Shown here in pieces: positions 1,799 to 8,063 of a stretch of 8,063 bases of DNA. Within the stretch, counting starts at the first letter, position 1; every line of letters starts with the position of its first letter. Below the pieces are notes generated by a model, which was given only the letters and a program-made list of their open reading frames with translations, searched no databases and was not told the origin of the DNA. The translations under genes and the position numbers were made by a program. The stretch is from Clostridia bacterium (GTDB lineage Bacteria > Bacillota_E > RBS10-35 > JAJYVN01): positions 1-8,063 of the forward strand of contig DAHWHT010000228.1 in the NCBI GenBank assembly GCA_027335515.1, given 5' to 3'.

Positions 1799-2866
1799 GT
1801 GCGACTGGACGGGCAGGAGACGTGCGGGCGGATCGTGCACGCCTGGAGCGGCTGGTATGAGGTGGCGACCGACGAAGGCCATGTGCTGTTGTGCCGGCCG
1901 CGTGGGCGGTTGCGCAGCCGAACCATGGGATGGCGCGATCGCCGCGATACCGACCGCGCCGATGCCGGGCTGTGGTCCGAAGAGGACGAGCCGGATGCGG
2001 CCGCGCTCCTGGGAAGCGGCACCCGGGCCGGTGCCGCCCGCCACACGCAGGCGCGGGCCGGCTCCGAAGGGGATGCCCCCGGGCCGGCCCTGCTGGCCGG
2101 CGATCGGGTGCGGCTCGTGGAACTCGGCGGCGGCGAGGGCCGCATTGATGCCGTGGAGCCGCGGCAGACCGTTTTGGTGCGCCCGCCGGTGGCCAACGTC
2201 GACTTCGTGCTGGTGGTGGCCGCCTGGGACGAACCGCCCTGGCACCCGGGGCTGATCGACCGTACCCTGGTGGAAGCGGCCCGCTGCGGGTGTGCCGTCG
2301 CCCTTTGCCTGAACAAGTGCGACCGCCTGGACGCAGCGAGCGCGGCGGCGGCGGCTGCCGCTGTGGCCCCCTACCGCGCGGCCGGGTATCCGGTCCTGCT
2401 GGCGTCGGCCGCCCGGGGCACGGGCATCGAAGCCATCCGCGCACTGCTTTGCGGCCGCGTCGCCGCCCTTGCCGGCCCAAGCGGCGGGGGAAAGTCGCGC
2501 CTGCTGGCGGCCCTCGTCCCCGGGGGCGCGGTCGGTCCGTCCGGGGCCCTGTCGCCGCGGCTGCGGCGGGGCCGGCATACGACGCGCTCGGTGCGGCTGC
2601 TCCCCCTGGAGCAGAGGGGCTGGGTGGCGGATACCCCGGGGTTCAGCCGCCTGGACCTGGCGGGGATGGACCCGGAGGCGTTGTCCGGCTGGTATCCCGA
2701 GTTTGTCGCCCCCGCAAAGCGGTGTCGGTTTCGCGGCTGCCTGCATGCCGACGAGCCGGATTGCGCCGTGCAGGCCGCGGTGCGCGCCGGAGCGGTCGAC
2801 GCCGGGCGCTATGCGCGCTACCGTGAACTGCTGGCGGAGCTGCGGGCCGCGCCGCCGCGCTGGTGA
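1799..2866 (+). CDS. rsgA: Ribosome small-subunit assembly GTPase RsgA (CpgA/YloQ)
   Basis: RsgA is a circularly permuted GTPase that binds the 30S subunit and checks late maturation. The permuted order is visible in this 355-residue protein: an N-terminal OB-fold (GRIVHAWSGWYEV from residue 10), then G4 NKCD (172-175), G5 LASA (201-204), G1 GPSGGGKS (226-233), G2 RHTT (259-262) and G3 DTPG (278-281). The C-terminal zinc finger has C309, C314, H316 and C322, followed by the family's RYARYRELLAEL helix. All motifs needed for activity are present. An in-frame TAA at 1790-1792 leaves GTG 1799 as the only start that keeps the first OB strand; its ribosome binding site is poor. The OB-fold carries an extra stretch of roughly 45 residues, rich in Ala, Gly, Arg, Asp and Glu, between RGRLR (36-40) and LLAGDRV (98-104). 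The stop overlaps the open frame of rpe, suggesting cotranscription. Confidence 0.95.
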   Translation: MRLDGQETCGRIVHAWSGWYEVATDEGHVLLCRPRGRLRSRTMGWRDRRDTDRADAGLWSEEDEPDAAALLGSGTRAGAARHTQARAGSEGDAPGPALLAGDRVRLVELGGGEGRIDAVEPRQTVLVRPPVANVDFVLVVAAWDEPPWHPGLIDRTLVEAARCGCAVALCLNKCDRLDAASAAAAAAAVAPYRAAGYPVLLASAARGTGIEAIRALLCGRVAALAGPSGGGKSRLLAALVPGGAVGPSGALSPRLRRGRHTTRSVRLLPLEQRGWVADTPGFSRLDLAGMDPEALSGWYPEFVAPAKRCRFRGCLHADEPDCAVQAAVRAGAVDAGRYARYRELLAELRAAPPRW

Positions 2867-4068: not shown

Positions 4069-5196
4069 ATGCCCGTCCACCCGGGGCGAACGCAGGGGGG
4101 GGCCATCCGGGGGGTGCCGACGGCGGACGCGGTGGGGCTGCTGAAGGCGTTGTGTGGTGCGACGGACGGCGGGTCCGGTCTGGAGGCGCCGGTGGCGGGC
4201 ACGCTGCGCGGCGTCTGGGCGGGGGTTGCCGACGAGGTCGGCGGCGATGGGATCGGCAACCTCTGGGCCGTGCGCCGGGGCGGCGGTGGTCCTCCCGTGC
4301 TGCTGGCCGCGCATCTGGACGTGATCAGCCTGATCGTCACGCGCCGCCTGCCAGGCGGGTTTTTGCGCTGTGCCCCGCTTGGGGGCGTGGATCCGCGGAC
4401 GCTCCCCGGGCGGGAGGTGGTGGTCCACGGACGCCAGAGCCTGCGGGCGATCGTGGCGACGGTCCCCCCGCACCTCACCCGCAGTGCGTCCCGCAGTCGA
4501 CTGCCTGCAGCGGATGCCGTGACCCTGGACACCGGCTTTCGGGACGAAGCGCTGGAGGGGCTGGTGCGGCCCGGGGATCGGGCGCACTTTGCCACCGAGC
4601 CGGCGGAACTCCTGGGCGGGCGCTGGACCGCCGCGGGCCTGGACAACCGCGCCGGGGTGGCCGCGCTCACGCAGGCCCTGGCGGCGCTGTCCGGGGTGAC
4701 CCTGGATGGCGACCTCGTCGTGGCGGCCAACGTGCAGGAAGAGGTCGGCCTGCGGGGGATCGCGCCGCTGGGGGAGCGGTTGCGTCCCGCGGCCGCCGTG
4801 GTGGTGGACGTCGGCTTTGCGCAGCAGCCCGGTGTGGAGGAATACCAGGGCGCGGCCTGCGGGGGTGGGCCCGTGCTGGCGCTCGGCCCTTCGCTGCACC
4901 CGGAGGTCCACCACCTGCTGGCGGCGGAGGCCCAACGCCTGGATATCCCCTTGCAGCGCGAGGTGCTCGCCGGTCCCAGCGGCACGGACGCCTGGGCCCT
5001 GCAGGTCGCCGCGGGCGGTGTGCCGACGGGTCTGCTCTCGATCCCCCTGCGGTCGATGCACAGCCCGTCCGAGGTCGTGGACCTCGCGGACGTGCGGCGG
5101 ACCGGCCTGCTGCTGGCCGCCTGGGCCCGCGCGGCCGGGTTGCACTGGCGTCGCGGGCTGACGCGCCGCCTGGCCGGGGGGGCGGCGCAGCCATGA
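4069..5196 (+). CDS. M42-family (TET-type) metallo-aminopeptidase, paralogue 1
   Basis: M42 enzymes are cytosolic two-metal aminopeptidases, often tetrahedral dodecamers, that trim peptides. In this 375-residue protein the expected residues are present: AAHLD with H82 and D84, GLDNRAG with the bridging D192, VQEEVGLRG with catalytic E224 and ligand E225, VVVDVG with D247, SGTDAW (304-309) and RSMHSPSEVVDL with H331. The first motif is slightly unusual, reading HLDVIS where HxDEIG is common, and the Asp usual six residues after D247 is Gln (AQQPG). Activity is likely; substrate preference is unknown. ATG 4069 has a weak, close upstream AGGG; GTG 4114, preceded by a long G-run, would start nearer the family's usual N-terminus and is a fair alternative. 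The gene begins 18 bases after spoVM and its stop overlaps the next start as ATGA, indicating translational coupling to paralogue 2. Confidence 0.88.
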   Translation: MPVHPGRTQGGAIRGVPTADAVGLLKALCGATDGGSGLEAPVAGTLRGVWAGVADEVGGDGIGNLWAVRRGGGGPPVLLAAHLDVISLIVTRRLPGGFLRCAPLGGVDPRTLPGREVVVHGRQSLRAIVATVPPHLTRSASRSRLPAADAVTLDTGFRDEALEGLVRPGDRAHFATEPAELLGGRWTAAGLDNRAGVAALTQALAALSGVTLDGDLVVAANVQEEVGLRGIAPLGERLRPAAAVVVDVGFAQQPGVEEYQGAACGGGPVLALGPSLHPEVHHLLAAEAQRLDIPLQREVLAGPSGTDAWALQVAAGGVPTGLLSIPLRSMHSPSEVVDLADVRRTGLLLAAWARAAGLHWRRGLTRRLAGGAAQP

Positions 5197-6221
5197 GCGC
5201 GACCGTTGACCTGGAGTGGCTGGCCCGCATCTGCCGCCTGCCCGGGGTGTCCGGCTCCGAGGGGCCGGTGCGGGACGCGGTGTGGGAGCGGTTGCGCCCC
5301 CTGGCACACGAGGCCTGGATCGACCCGCTGGGCAACCTGGTGCTCACGCGGGGGTGGCGGGACGGCCGTGGGCCGCGCACGCTGCTGTGCGCGCATCTGG
5401 ACGAGGTCGGCCTGATCGTGACCGGGGTGGACCCTGCGGGGCTCTTGCGGTTCGACCTGGTCGGCGGGATCGATGTGCGGCTCCTGCCGGGGTGCGCGGT
5501 GCGGATCGGGCCGGAGGGTATCCCGGGTGCGGTGACGGCGGTCCCGGTTCACCTGACCCCCGTCGCCAAGCGCCGCCAGGCGGCTGCGCTGGAAGACCTG
5601 CGTCTGGACATCGGCGCGCGGGACGCGGCCCAGGCGCGTCGGGCGGTGGAACTGGGCGCCTGCGCGGTGTTCGCCGGCCCGGCCGGACCGTTGGGGCAGC
5701 TCTTTCGCGCCAAGGCATTGGACGACCGGGCGGGGATCTGCGTGCTGGCCGCCGCCCTGGAGGCCCTGGCCGACACCGGGCGGCCCCTGGCCGTCGCCTT
5801 CACCGTTCAGGAGGAGATCGGCACCCGCGGGGCGGCCGCGGTGGCCGACCGGTTGGCGCCGGACCAGGCTGTGATCGTGGAGACGACCACGGCGGTCGAC
5901 CTGCCCGGAATCCCCGGGCGCAACCAGGTGACGCGCCTCGGGCGGGGGCCGGTGTTGACCGCGCTGGACGGCGGCATGGTCGCGGCCCCCGATCTGACGG
6001 CATCCCTGGTGGCGGCCGCACAGCAGGCCGGCCTGGCGTATCAGTGGAAACAGGCCGCAAGCGGCGGTACCGACGCCGCCCGGTTTCAGGCGTCGGGGGC
6101 CCGCGCGGCGGTCGTCTCGGTCCCGGCCCGCTACCTCCACGCCCCGGCGAGCGTCCTGGACCCGCGGGACCTTCAGGGTGCCGCCGATCTGGTCGCCGCC
6201 TGGTTTCGCGCGGGTGGGTGA
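5193..6221 (+). CDS. M42-family (TET-type) metallo-aminopeptidase, paralogue 2
   Basis: This 342-residue protein is the most canonical of the three M42 paralogues. It has LPGVSGSEGPVRDAV (16-30) at the N-terminus; CAHLDEVGLIV with H68 and D70; KALDDRAG with the bridging D177; TVQEEIGTRG with catalytic E207 and ligand E208; VIVETTTAVDLPG with E230 at the fourth ligand position, where a sizeable part of the family uses Glu instead of Asp; SGGTDAARF (290-298); and RYLHAP with H316. The two-metal site therefore looks complete. The start overlaps the stop of paralogue 1 (ATGA, 5193-5196), so the two are probably made from one message and perhaps assembled together. The stop is followed after 40 bases by the start of paralogue 3. 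No signal peptide is seen, which agrees with a cytosolic enzyme. It could be called a glutamyl- or leucyl-type aminopeptidase, but specificity cannot be read from the sequence. Confidence 0.92.
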   Translation: MSATVDLEWLARICRLPGVSGSEGPVRDAVWERLRPLAHEAWIDPLGNLVLTRGWRDGRGPRTLLCAHLDEVGLIVTGVDPAGLLRFDLVGGIDVRLLPGCAVRIGPEGIPGAVTAVPVHLTPVAKRRQAAALEDLRLDIGARDAAQARRAVELGACAVFAGPAGPLGQLFRAKALDDRAGICVLAAALEALADTGRPLAVAFTVQEEIGTRGAAAVADRLAPDQAVIVETTTAVDLPGIPGRNQVTRLGRGPVLTALDGGMVAAPDLTASLVAAAQQAGLAYQWKQAASGGTDAARFQASGARAAVVSVPARYLHAPASVLDPRDLQGAADLVAAWFRAGG

Positions 6222-6261: not shown

Positions 6262-7308
6262 ATGGCGGGTCCGCAAGGGCACCGCCGCAAGGTGGACGAT
6301 CGGGCGGCCCTGACGCGTTGGATCTGTGAGTTGAGCGATGCCTTCGGTCCGAGCGGGCATGAGGCCCAGGTGCGGGCCCACCTGGAGACCCTGCTTCAGG
6401 GCGCGGTGGCGACCGTTCGTGTGGACGCGCTCGGCAATCTGATCGCGCGCCGGCCGGGACCGGGTCGGCGGCTGCTGATGCTTGTCCCGATGGACGAGGC
6501 GGGCGCGGCCTTGACCCATGTGGACGCCGCGGGGCGCGGTTGGCTGGCGGGGCTCGGGCCGCTGGACCCGGCGTCGCTGGTTGGCGGCCGGATGCGGCTG
6601 GCATCCGGGCAGGTGGCGGTGGTGGGCGTGCGTCCACGGCGTGCGGCCGACGCCAACGGCATCCCCTGGGCGCGGCTCTATCTGGACTTTGGGGGGGCCG
6701 CGGCAGGGGCGGCGATCGGAGTGGGCGATGCCGCGGTGCCCGACGTCGCGGCGCGGGTCCTGCCGGGTGGGGCGGCCTGCGGGCGGGCCATGGCTTCCCG
6801 GGCGGCGTGCGCCGCGGCCGTGACCGCCCTGCACGCAACCCGGGGCGACACCGCGGGGGTCGATCTGACCGTGGCCTTTGTGGTCCAGGGCGAACTCGGT
6901 CAGCGCGGGGTGCGGCCGGTGGTGGTTGGCTGCCCGGCGGATTGGATCGTCGCCGTCGGCGGGGTGGCGGCCACCGATACGCCGGGCGCCCGGGGGGCGG
7001 ACGTGCGCCTGGGGGGTGGGGCCTGCCTCGTCGTTCAGGACGATGGCCTGGTCGCCCCGCCGCCGGCTTTGGATGCGCTGACCGCCGCCGCCCAGCGGGC
7101 GGGCCGCAGCCTTCAGGCGGCCGTGGGGGATGGCGGGACCAGCGCCGCCGGACCGGCGCTGCAGGCTGCGGGCGGTGCGGCGGCCGGGGCCCTCGCCCTG
7201 CCCGTACGCTACCGCCATACCCCGGTGGAAGTGGTGGAGCCTGCGGATGCCGCCGCGCTGGTGGATGTGCTGGTGGCGCTCTGGCGGGAGTCAACGACCG
7301 TCGGCTAA
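6262..7308 (+). CDS. Catalytically degenerate M42-family paralogue (pseudo-peptidase)
   Basis: The 348-residue protein has the M42 layout: SDAFGPSGHEAQVRAHL (25-41), VDALGNLIARR (54-64), LLMLVPMDEAG (71-81), VVQGELGQRG (207-216), ATDTPG (237-242), GDGGTSAAG and RYRHTPVEVVEPAD (316-329). Most active-site residues are replaced: the first metal His is P76, the bridging Asp is A178 (RAMASRAA), the catalytic Glu is G210, the fourth ligand is G233, and the Asp of GGTDA is S294. D78, E211 and H319 remain. Distances between motifs match paralogues 1 and 2, so the fold is probably kept while catalysis is lost. The frame has no stops or frameshifts, so this is not simple decay. The start is the ATG after a G-run; GTG 6292 is an alternative. 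The last codons (Thr-Val-Gly-stop) lie at or inside the end palindrome of the adjacent TnpB element. A structural or regulatory subunit of a mixed M42 complex is a hypothesis. Confidence 0.82.
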   Translation: MAGPQGHRRKVDDRAALTRWICELSDAFGPSGHEAQVRAHLETLLQGAVATVRVDALGNLIARRPGPGRRLLMLVPMDEAGAALTHVDAAGRGWLAGLGPLDPASLVGGRMRLASGQVAVVGVRPRRAADANGIPWARLYLDFGGAAAGAAIGVGDAAVPDVAARVLPGGAACGRAMASRAACAAAVTALHATRGDTAGVDLTVAFVVQGELGQRGVRPVVVGCPADWIVAVGGVAATDTPGARGADVRLGGGACLVVQDDGLVAPPPALDALTAAAQRAGRSLQAAVGDGGTSAAGPALQAAGGAAAGALALPVRYRHTPVEVVEPADAAALVDVLVALWRESTTVG

Positions 7309-7317
7309 AGCCGACGG
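7298..7317. repeat. Palindrome at the 3' end of the TnpB element, holding two convergent stop codons
   Basis: CCGTCGGCT (7298-7306) and AGCCGACGG (7309-7317) are perfect inverted copies separated by two bases, or an 8-bp stem with the loop TAAA. Subterminal hairpins of this kind mark the ends of IS200/IS605/IS1341-type elements. The TAA of the third M42 gene (7306-7308) and the TAG of tnpB (7307-7305 on the minus strand) both fall in its centre. No T-run follows on either side, so termination of transcription is uncertain. Confidence 0.75.
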
Positions 7318-7440
7318 CTTGCAGCTACAGGATCGTGCTGCGATAGGCCGGTTGACGACGGCCCGCCAGTCCCACGTGTAGCAAGGCTGGCAAGGTGGTT
7401 GGCTCCGATGTTCCTGGCCGCATTCAGGTCCGCGTGAAGG
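7298..7440 (-). ncRNA. Candidate omega-RNA region at the 3' end of tnpB
   Basis: TnpB nucleases use an omega-RNA transcribed from the 3' end of tnpB and the right end of the element, with the guide supplied by flanking DNA. On the minus strand the last 30 or so codons of tnpB, after the final RuvC Asp motif, are not part of the conserved nuclease and run into the end hairpin, where the scaffold would be expected. The boundaries are approximate and rest on family knowledge, not on a recognised consensus. Confidence 0.35.
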
Positions 7441-8063
7441 GAGAAGCCGCATTGCTTGCAGCGGAAGTCGCCTCGGCTCCGGCGGTTGGCCTTCTCTCGG
7501 TGCCCGCACCGGCTGCACTTCTGGCTGGTGTAGCGGGGGTCGACCGTATCAACAACCACACCCACCAACGCCGCCTTGTAGCGTGCGAACCCGAGCAGGC
7601 GAGCAAAGGACCACGAGTGCAGGCGCCTACGCTGCCGCTTGCGTCCCTTCATGCGGGCACGGATGTCGGTCAAGTCCTCGAAGACCAGCGCGGCGCCTGG
7701 CTCCACGGACTGGACCAGGCGCTTGGACAGCACGTGGTCACAGTCCCGGCGGAAACGTTCCTGGCGGCCAGACACCTTGCGCAGGTGCCGCTTGGCCGAC
7801 CGTGTGCCTTTCGCCTGAAGAGCGCGGCGCAGACGGAACGAGCGGTCCTCGATCTCCCGCCAGCGGCGAGTACCGAGGAACTGGGCCTGGGAGGTCACGG
7901 CGGGGCACGCCACGCCGAGGTCAACACCGACCACCTCTCCCGTGGGTTGGACTTGCGGCTCCGGGGATTCGACCACGACATGCAGCCAAAGCCGACCCTT
8001 GCGGTCTACGCAGAGGTCGGACGAGCGAACAGGCAGATCCACACGCCCCGCATGGCAAAGGGG
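7305..8063 (-). CDS. tnpB: RNA-guided nuclease TnpB (IS200/IS605/IS1341 or IS607 type), 5' partial
   Basis: TnpB is the transposon-encoded, omega-RNA-guided DNA endonuclease related to the ancestor of Cas12. The frame is open to the right window edge, so the N-terminal third or so is outside and the GTG at 8042 is internal. Counting from that Val: GVDLG holds the first RuvC Asp (D41); a basic stretch follows; ALVFEDLTDIR holds the RuvC Glu (E122); the zinc finger is C176-C179 (CSRC) and C195-C198 (CKQC); and SLHADLNAARNIG holds the last RuvC Asp (D205). The triad and finger are intact with no frameshift, so this copy looks functional over the visible part. A tail of about 30 residues after the last motif overlaps the probable omega-RNA. 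It runs convergently into the third M42 gene and shares its end palindrome. Whether a tnpA lies beyond the window is unknown. Confidence 0.93.
   Translation of the reverse strand, partial: PLCHAGRVDLPVRSSDLCVDRKGRLWLHVVVESPEPQVQPTGEVVGVDLGVACPAVTSQAQFLGTRRWREIEDRSFRLRRALQAKGTRSAKRHLRKVSGRQERFRRDCDHVLSKRLVQSVEPGAALVFEDLTDIRARMKGRKRQRRRLHSWSFARLLGFARYKAALVGVVVDTVDPRYTSQKCSRCGHREKANRRSRGDFRCKQCGFSLHADLNAARNIGANHLASLATRGTGGPSSTGLSQHDPVAASRRL

What the first reader, a model, noticed from the sequence alone, without database searches (positions are those of the whole stretch)
6262..7308. An intact-frame M42 paralogue with a dismantled active site, encoded with two active-looking paralogues
Seen: the third tandem M42 gene keeps family spacing and several diagnostic segments but has Pro for the first metal His (P76), Ala for the bridging Asp (A178), Gly for the catalytic Glu (G210) and Gly for the fourth ligand (G233), while D78, E211 and H319 survive. 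Known: M42 peptidases form large tetrahedral assemblies, and hetero-oligomers of TET paralogues are known in archaea. Inference: this protein may be a non-catalytic structural, gating or regulatory subunit of a mixed TET complex, or may have gained a new binding role. The uninterrupted frame argues for selection on the protein rather than decay.
Basis: partly seen in the sequence, partly recalled or inferred. Interest (0 to 1): 0.85.

Follow-up and report, generated by a model that had tools for sequence, protein, structure and literature searches.

The report
Dead third subunit in peptidase operon
In a conserved three-gene set for cage-like peptide-cutting enzymes, the third protein has lost its cutting site in several bacterial lineages yet is still kept nearly intact by selection, so it probably serves as a non-cutting part of the cage.

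Summary
Window 6262-7308 encodes an intact 348-aa M42 (TET aminopeptidase) paralogue with Pro, Ala, Gly and Gly at H68, D182, E212 and D235 (PhTET2 numbering); D78, E211 and H319 survive. It is the third gene (C) of a conserved A-B-C tandem of Bacillota; A and B keep their sites.

It is not a private oddity. Its eight closest relatives (45-80% identity) share the loss. In 143 complete A-B-C tandems, C is dead in 15, B in none, A in none apart from one frameshifted copy. On the A+B tree the dead state needs four changes. C is constrained: dN/dS 0.20, against 0.16 for A and 0.17 for B. Every dead row lost the general-base Glu (24 of 24), while the flanking Gln and Arg, which contact the neighbouring subunit in PfTET3, remain in 23 and 21.

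Most likely C is a pseudoenzyme subunit that co-assembles with A and/or B in a mixed TET particle. Death (by sequence) and constraint are shown; co-assembly is inferred. Precedents: PhTET2-PhTET3 (in vitro), YtoP-YsdC (in-cell crosslinks); A and B are fused in two loci.

The parts
4069..5196 (+). M42 gene A (375 aa), ligands intact (H D D E E D H)
   Evidence: Pfam PF05343 E 6.1e-64; ligand string; groups with first genes of A-B-C tandems, 97*
5193..6221 (+). M42 gene B (342 aa), ligands intact with Glu as fourth ligand
   Evidence: Pfam PF05343 E 1.1e-67; ligand string HDDEEEH; groups with second genes of the tandems, 99*
6262..7308 (+). M42 gene C (348 aa), catalytically dead paralogue
   Evidence: Pfam PF05343 E 2.3e-34; AlphaFold pLDDT 92.9, pTM 0.93; eight closest relatives share the loss
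6487..6489 (+). codon of P76 (metal M2 His in active enzymes)
6493..6495 (+). codon of D78, kept in 24 of 24 dead C rows
6793..6795 (+). codon of A178 (bridging Asp in active enzymes)
6886..6906 (+). loop Q209-G210-E211-x-x-x-R215: general base lost, Gln and Arg of the subunit interface kept
   Evidence: interface role of the equivalent PfTET3 Gln206/Arg212 from PMC4745047 passages
6958..6960 (+). codon of G233 (fourth ligand, Asp in active C)
7216..7218 (+). codon of H319 (metal M1 His), kept
1799..2866 (+). rsgA, syntenic neighbour
   Evidence: Pfam RsgA_GTPase E 8.8e-42; same order in L081, L082, L083
2863..3642 (+). rpe (ribulose-phosphate 3-epimerase), syntenic neighbour
   Evidence: Pfam E 8.6e-74; same order in L081, L082, L083

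Best explanation
Gene C encodes a pseudoenzyme subunit of the M42/TET family. Its ancestor was probably the third member of a three-paralogue TET operon (A-B-C) whose C member usually keeps a complete active site and resembles the active aminopeptidase TmPep1050. In this lineage the general base and most metal ligands were replaced, so C should neither hold the dinuclear metal centre nor cut peptides (read from sequence, not assayed). The fold (predicted), the neighbour-contacting Gln and Arg of the catalytic loop and the coding frame were kept by selection. The most likely mode of action is as follows (inferred). C dimers enter mixed tetrahedral particles with A and/or B dimers. There they complete the cage and put a non-cutting pocket next to cutting ones at the vertices, which sets the number and mix of active sites, peptide handling or assembly. 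In known TETs metal at site M1 holds the dodecamer together, so a metal-free C would be expected to depend on A or B for assembly.
Against: No test of association was possible: only a single chain was modelled. Gene order does not show a complex, and the fusions join A to B, not C. M1 loss in the window's clade could also mean that C never joins a dodecamer. Ten loci have A+B and no C next to them (L013, L014, L024, L025, L154, L155, L157, L158, L208, L219), so C is not needed for an A-B particle. The tree does not prove that dead C descends from C: AU tests do not reject grouping it with A (p 0.54) or B (p 0.60), although the free tree puts it with C at 99*. The kept Gln and Arg may only reflect the fold; R215 is lost in L082 (P0009 is the same protein) and L083. 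PMC3511314 says that three S. thermophilum M42 proteins were characterised and all appear to be aminopeptidases (passage); if one is the C copy of G411, that copy is not dead.
Confidence: 0.6

Rival explanations
1. C has left the TET particle and works alone, as a free dimer that binds peptides, amino acids or another partner through the emptied pocket.
For: Metal loss removes a known assembly force (PMC4745047, passages). In the window's clade the pocket has its own conserved replacements, such as A287 (9 of 10 rows) for a Glu kept in 99% of intact C rows, and A299. C evolves faster than A and B in two bootstrapped pairs of the Symbiobacterium-like clade (dN/dS 0.30-0.31 against 0.16-0.21).
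Against: In the 15 complete dead-C loci C stands third after A and B, and subunit-contact residues are mostly kept. Different lineages lost different residues, which is not what one shared new ligand would predict.
Confidence: 0.22
2. C keeps or gained another chemistry. Most Symbiobacterium-like copies keep all three M2 ligands (H68, D182, D235) and could bind one metal and do something other than peptide hydrolysis.
For: HDDGEDG, HDDGQDG and HDDGADG strings keep M2 (M2 ligands from PMC4745047, passages).
Against: The window's own clade lost H68, D182 and D235 in all 10 rows examined, so this cannot apply to the window's protein; the general base is lost in all 24 dead rows.
Confidence: 0.08
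3. C is a decaying pseudogene under relaxed constraint.
For: C has a higher dN/dS than A and B in the window pair (slightly) and in four of the five other dead-C pairs.
Against: dN/dS 0.20 (0.144-0.276) for window against G524, close to A and B; in a fifth dead-C pair (L142-L150) C equals A and B (0.154, 0.156, 0.160); some pairs with intact C show a raised C too. Each dead C of the 17 loci lies in one open frame, though the scan saw only open frames. Many residues are invariant over nine proteins, eight of them at 45-80% identity to the window's.
Confidence: 0.03
4. C is still an aminopeptidase that uses other residues for metal and base.
For: D78 is kept in 24 of 24 dead rows and E211 in 14 of 24. 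Characterised S. thermophilum M42 enzymes may include its C copy (PMC3511314, passage).
Against: B keeps the full set in 143 of 143 tandems and A in 140, the other three being one frameshift and two cut by contig ends. In the window's protein the replacements are Pro, Ala, Gly and Gly, whose side chains cannot bind metal or act as base.
Confidence: 0.05

Closest known systems
TmPep1050 (Thermotoga maritima M42 aminopeptidase, PDB 4p6y/3isx)
   Different: TmPep1050 is an active, metal-dependent aminopeptidase with all five ligands and the base (PMC3511314, passages); C lacks the base and three of five ligands.
PhTET2-PhTET3 heterododecamers (Pyrococcus horikoshii)
   Same: Two M42 paralogues assemble into one defined tetrahedral particle (PMC4220976, passages).
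   Different: The paper speaks of active sites of both subunits, and the particles were reconstituted in vitro.
YtoP-YsdC heteromer (Bacillus subtilis)
   Same: M42 paralogues in contact inside a Bacillota cell by crosslinking MS (PMC10090944, passages; model 9a5r).
   Different: Not described as inactive in the two passages seen; dispersed genes (recalled).
ClpP-ClpR and inactive beta subunits of eukaryotic proteasomes (recalled, no call)
   Same: Dead paralogues kept as parts of a self-compartmentalised protease.
   Different: Unrelated folds and chemistry; the particle here is unproven.

Membership tests
M42 peptidase family (fold and homology) | Match to Peptidase_M42 profile over its length | tested here: met
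   PF05343 E 2.3e-34, 119 bits against cut-off 23.2, profile 1-291/292
M42 peptidase family (fold and homology) | M42 fold with catalytic and PDZ-like domains | tested here: met
Active M42 aminopeptidase | Dinuclear metal ligands H68, D182, E213, D/E235, H323 | tested here: not met
   P, A, E, G, H at these positions
Active M42 aminopeptidase | General base E212 | tested here: not met
   G210 in the window's protein; lost in 24 of 24 dead C rows
TET particle subunit | Interface loop Gln and Arg that contact the neighbour | tested here: met
   Q209 and R215 present in the window's protein; role taken from PfTET3 (PMC4745047, passages)
TET particle subunit | Assembles into a dodecamer, alone or with paralogues | not testable with these tools
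   Only single chains can be modelled here
Third member (C) of the A-B-C M42 tandem | Third position after A and B on the same strand | tested here: met
   Window order; same order in L080-L083
Third member (C) of the A-B-C M42 tandem | Groups with C in a tree | tested here: inconclusive
   With C at 99* in the free tree, but AU tests do not reject grouping with A (0.54) or B (0.60)

The most novel reading that the evidence does not exclude
The A-B-C operon makes one hetero-TET particle in which position C is evolutionarily free to lose catalysis. In several Bacillota lineages C has become a fixed non-catalytic subunit that sets assembly or gating of the particle, a pseudo-subunit class that I found described for no TET peptidase in the searches listed under Tried and rejected.
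Probability: 0.45. Interest if true: 0.78.

Novelty: new variant of a known kind. Interest (0 to 1): 0.66.

Why it matters
The M42/TET particles met in the papers read are mostly homododecamers of one active protein. A conserved three-gene set in which one defined member loses catalysis in several lineages, while the other two kept it in the 143 tandems read, argues that the three proteins have different jobs and may share a particle. It gives a natural separation-of-function case for the question of why TETs are multimeric and why many genomes keep several paralogues. It also warns that annotation by family name ("M42 family metallopeptidase") would mislead for these proteins.

Tried and rejected
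Decay was rejected by dN/dS and open frames. An assembly or sequencing artefact was rejected because separate genomes share the state. A single loss for all dead C is not favoured: starred branches of the A+B tree force at least three changes on 60 rows (two on 78 rows), and grouping the window's clade with L107 and L086 is rejected (p 0.006). But a change may be a regain, and grouping the window's clade with the Symbiobacterium-like clade is not rejected (p 0.31 on A+B; p 0.56 on C). L200 (G267) resembles the window's clade in sequence and sits next to it on the unrooted A+B tree, so it may not be a separate event. The count of independent losses is open, plausibly two to five. Two further AU tests did not finish. 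If losses fell at random among three subunits, three events in one subunit would have probability 1/9, so "only C" rests on few events.

Definitions: a copy was called dead if it departs at H68, D182, E212, E213, D/E235 or H323. D70 (window D78) was not counted; one B (L187) has Glu there.

Paper searches for inactive M42 or TET subunits listed nothing on dead TET subunits in the held open-access library; absence from the literature as a whole is not claimed. [quoted passage not shown] The Symbiobacterium M42 paper (Kumaki 2011) and Dutoit 2019 were seen only as references; the latter is not held and the former was not looked up. PMC3511314 aligned SthPep1079 and SthPep1080 and says all its aligned sequences have the base Glu; I could not tell whether either is the C copy of G411.

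Sampling: the 143 tandems are not a random sample. They are the window and loci matching the query; hits to the dead-C profile in one class (154 genomes, 91 with a hit, 83 of those read, 8 without a listed place; three of the 83, G058, G097 and G186, were read only and are not in the 143); seven genomes of a second class; and 60 regions around B hits (35 genomes without a C hit at 1e-60, 23 outside that draw, and G170 and G245 with a C hit). 34 of the 177 loci scored lacked a complete set and were left out. Loci L028-L079 from the search calls were examined but not counted. The scan used open frames, so a C broken by stops would be missed.

Full report
What is there. The window (74% GC) holds, on the + strand, a PASTA-domain protein (probably the end of a Ser/Thr kinase), rsgA, rpe, three M42 genes (A 4069-5196, B 5193-6221, C 6262-7308), then a TnpB-like gene on the - strand. 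A and B keep every catalytic residue. C is intact as a frame but has P76, A178, G210 and G233 for the first His, bridging Asp, general base and fourth ligand; E211 and H319 remain. In PfTET3, site M2 uses His63, Asp177 and Asp230, and site M1 uses Asp177, Glu208 and His314 (PMC4745047, passages). So C has lost all of M2 and the shared Asp of M1, as well as the base.

The loss is a property of a clade. Two searches of a database of about 5.8 billion proteins (some 8,000 candidates scored in each) gave the same nine close degenerate proteins, the window's included; one search also listed a distant degenerate one, P0019. All nine depart at the first His, the bridging Asp, the base and the fourth ligand; eight keep the last His. 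They form one clade (100*). Equal contig lengths and overlapping sources suggest that C and B lie on one contig in three further records: P0002 with P0024 (31,037), P0004 with P0025 (29,440), P0003 with P0030 (4,191). Four genomes of one class carry A-B-dead C directly: G522/L080, G524/L081, G521/L082, G520/L083. In three of them the PASTA gene, rsgA and rpe precede the tandem as in the window; the fourth contig is 4.8 kb long.

The A-B-C tandem is general and C is usually intact. In the tree A and B are each one group, and C forms one with the dead clade. Among solved structures the window's C and the Thermaerobacter C match TmPep1050 and its mutants best, and the window's B matches 2fvg (TM1049), so the same set probably exists in Thermotoga.

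C dies more than once; A and B did not in what I read. Of 143 complete tandems, C departs from the catalytic set in 15, B in 0 and A in 1, and that one is a frameshift near the end of A in G524; two further A copies are cut by contig ends. Two partial loci (L086, L134) add dead C. The states differ. The window's clade lost H68, D182, E212 and D235. A Symbiobacterium-like clade lost E212 and H323 but keeps M2 in most rows (HDDGEDG, HDDGQDG, HDDGADG; one row, L087, lost nearly all). L086 is HDGKEDF, L107 HDDSEEL, L200 PDGSLQT. On the tree of the A+B proteins the dead label needs 3 changes on 78 rows, of which starred branches force 2, and 4 on 60 rows, of which they force 3. Whether the window's clade, L200 and the Symbiobacterium-like clade share one loss is open. 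G411, in the latter clade, has a contig of 3,566,135 bases, which I recall as the size of the Symbiobacterium thermophilum genome; no call confirms the name.

Selection. Between the window and G524 the C proteins are 80% identical with dN/dS 0.20 (bootstrap 0.144-0.276), against 0.163 for A and 0.165 for B. In the Symbiobacterium-like clade C is at 0.27-0.31 over three close pairs (A and B 0.16-0.24), 0.395 for L087-L096 (A 0.337, B 0.342) and 0.154 for L142-L150 (A 0.156, B 0.160). Pairs with intact C vary as well: C is above A and B in three of five (up to 0.257 against 0.131 and 0.158) and below in two, so a faster C is not special to dead copies. Constraint is clear in all. This is a simple counting method, and dS of about 0.6 in GC-rich genes is only approximate.

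What is kept. Over 24 dead-C rows (P0009 is the protein of L082, P0005 is 99% identical to L080, and L096 and L134 are close in the tree) the base is lost in 24, while D78, R180 and R316 are kept in 24, E34 in all 22 rows with a residue, Q209 in 23 and R215 in 21. In PfTET3 the equivalents of Q209 and R215 (Gln206, Arg212) hydrogen-bond to the neighbouring subunit and lie in the same loop as the two catalytic Glu. Loss is thus concentrated on chemistry and not on the contacts. Mean conservation is similar across the domains. The model is a confident M42 fold (pLDDT 92.9) closest to TmPep1050 and other TET subunits.

Mechanism. Shown: homology, predicted fold, dead site by sequence, conserved tandem, constraint. 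Well supported: more than one loss, each in C. Inferred: C acts inside a mixed particle with A and/or B. Support: in 2 of 177 loci (L014, L200) A and B are one frame with a linker, as if they work as parts of one assembly; L200 also carries a dead C. Precedent: PhTET2 and PhTET3 dimers build defined heterododecamers whose vertices mix both subunits (PMC4220976, passages), and YtoP and YsdC touch in B. subtilis cells (PMC10090944, passages). Removing M1 metal partly dissociates PfTET3, and metals matter for dodecamer assembly (PMC8993905, passages). So a C without metal sites would probably need its paralogues. Of 11 dead-C genomes searched whole, 10 hold a further M42 gene outside the tandem, and G522 showed only the three; I did not check the sites of those further genes, and one (G520) has a stop inside. 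Lost C activity may thus be covered elsewhere.

Weak points. No association test. The tree does not by itself prove descent from C, though gene order and best matches favour it. Few independent events. The sampling was not random. Ten loci have A and B with no C beside them. One paper states that three S. thermophilum M42 proteins are aminopeptidases (PMC3511314, passage), and I could not see whether the C copy is among them.

Verdict. A real, conserved pseudoenzyme by sequence, the third member of a three-gene M42 set, dead in several lineages. New variant of a known kind: dead subunits of protease cages are known (recalled), but I found none described for TET in the searches listed under Tried and rejected.

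Noticed in passing
window 7290-8042: A TnpB-like element sits directly at the end of gene C. G524 ends C with GAG TGA; the window reads GAG TCA ACG ACC GTC GGC TAA, so the stop codon of C lies inside the hairpin-like GTCGGC-TAAA-GCCGAC at the edge of the element and C has gained a five-residue tail. The TnpB gene is short (245 aa) against a 389-position profile.
   Followed up: partly
L081:6705-6944: A TnpB-like fragment (59% identity to the window's) lies between rsgA and rpe in G524, where the window has none.
   Followed up: no
L081:8379-9523: Gene A of G524 is split by a frame change near its end (two tblastn pieces); it may be a sequencing error or a real lesion.
   Followed up: no
L014:118-2250 and L200:1727-4306: A and B are fused in one open frame with a linker, the only 2 such cases among 177 loci scored; L014 has no C beside it, L200 has a dead C.
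   Followed up: partly
P0019 (370 aa): A separate M42-like protein with an apparent signal peptide and a degenerate site (GDGSRGG), 29% identical to C; perhaps an unrelated secreted M42 pseudoenzyme.
   Followed up: no
L013, L014, L024, L025, L154, L155, L157, L158, L208, L219: A and B with no C next to them, so C can be absent.
   Followed up: partly
gene B of A-B-C tandems: B uses Glu as fourth metal ligand in 141 of 143 tandems, while A uses Asp in 143 of 143 and intact C uses Asp: a stable, subtype-specific metal site.
   Followed up: partly
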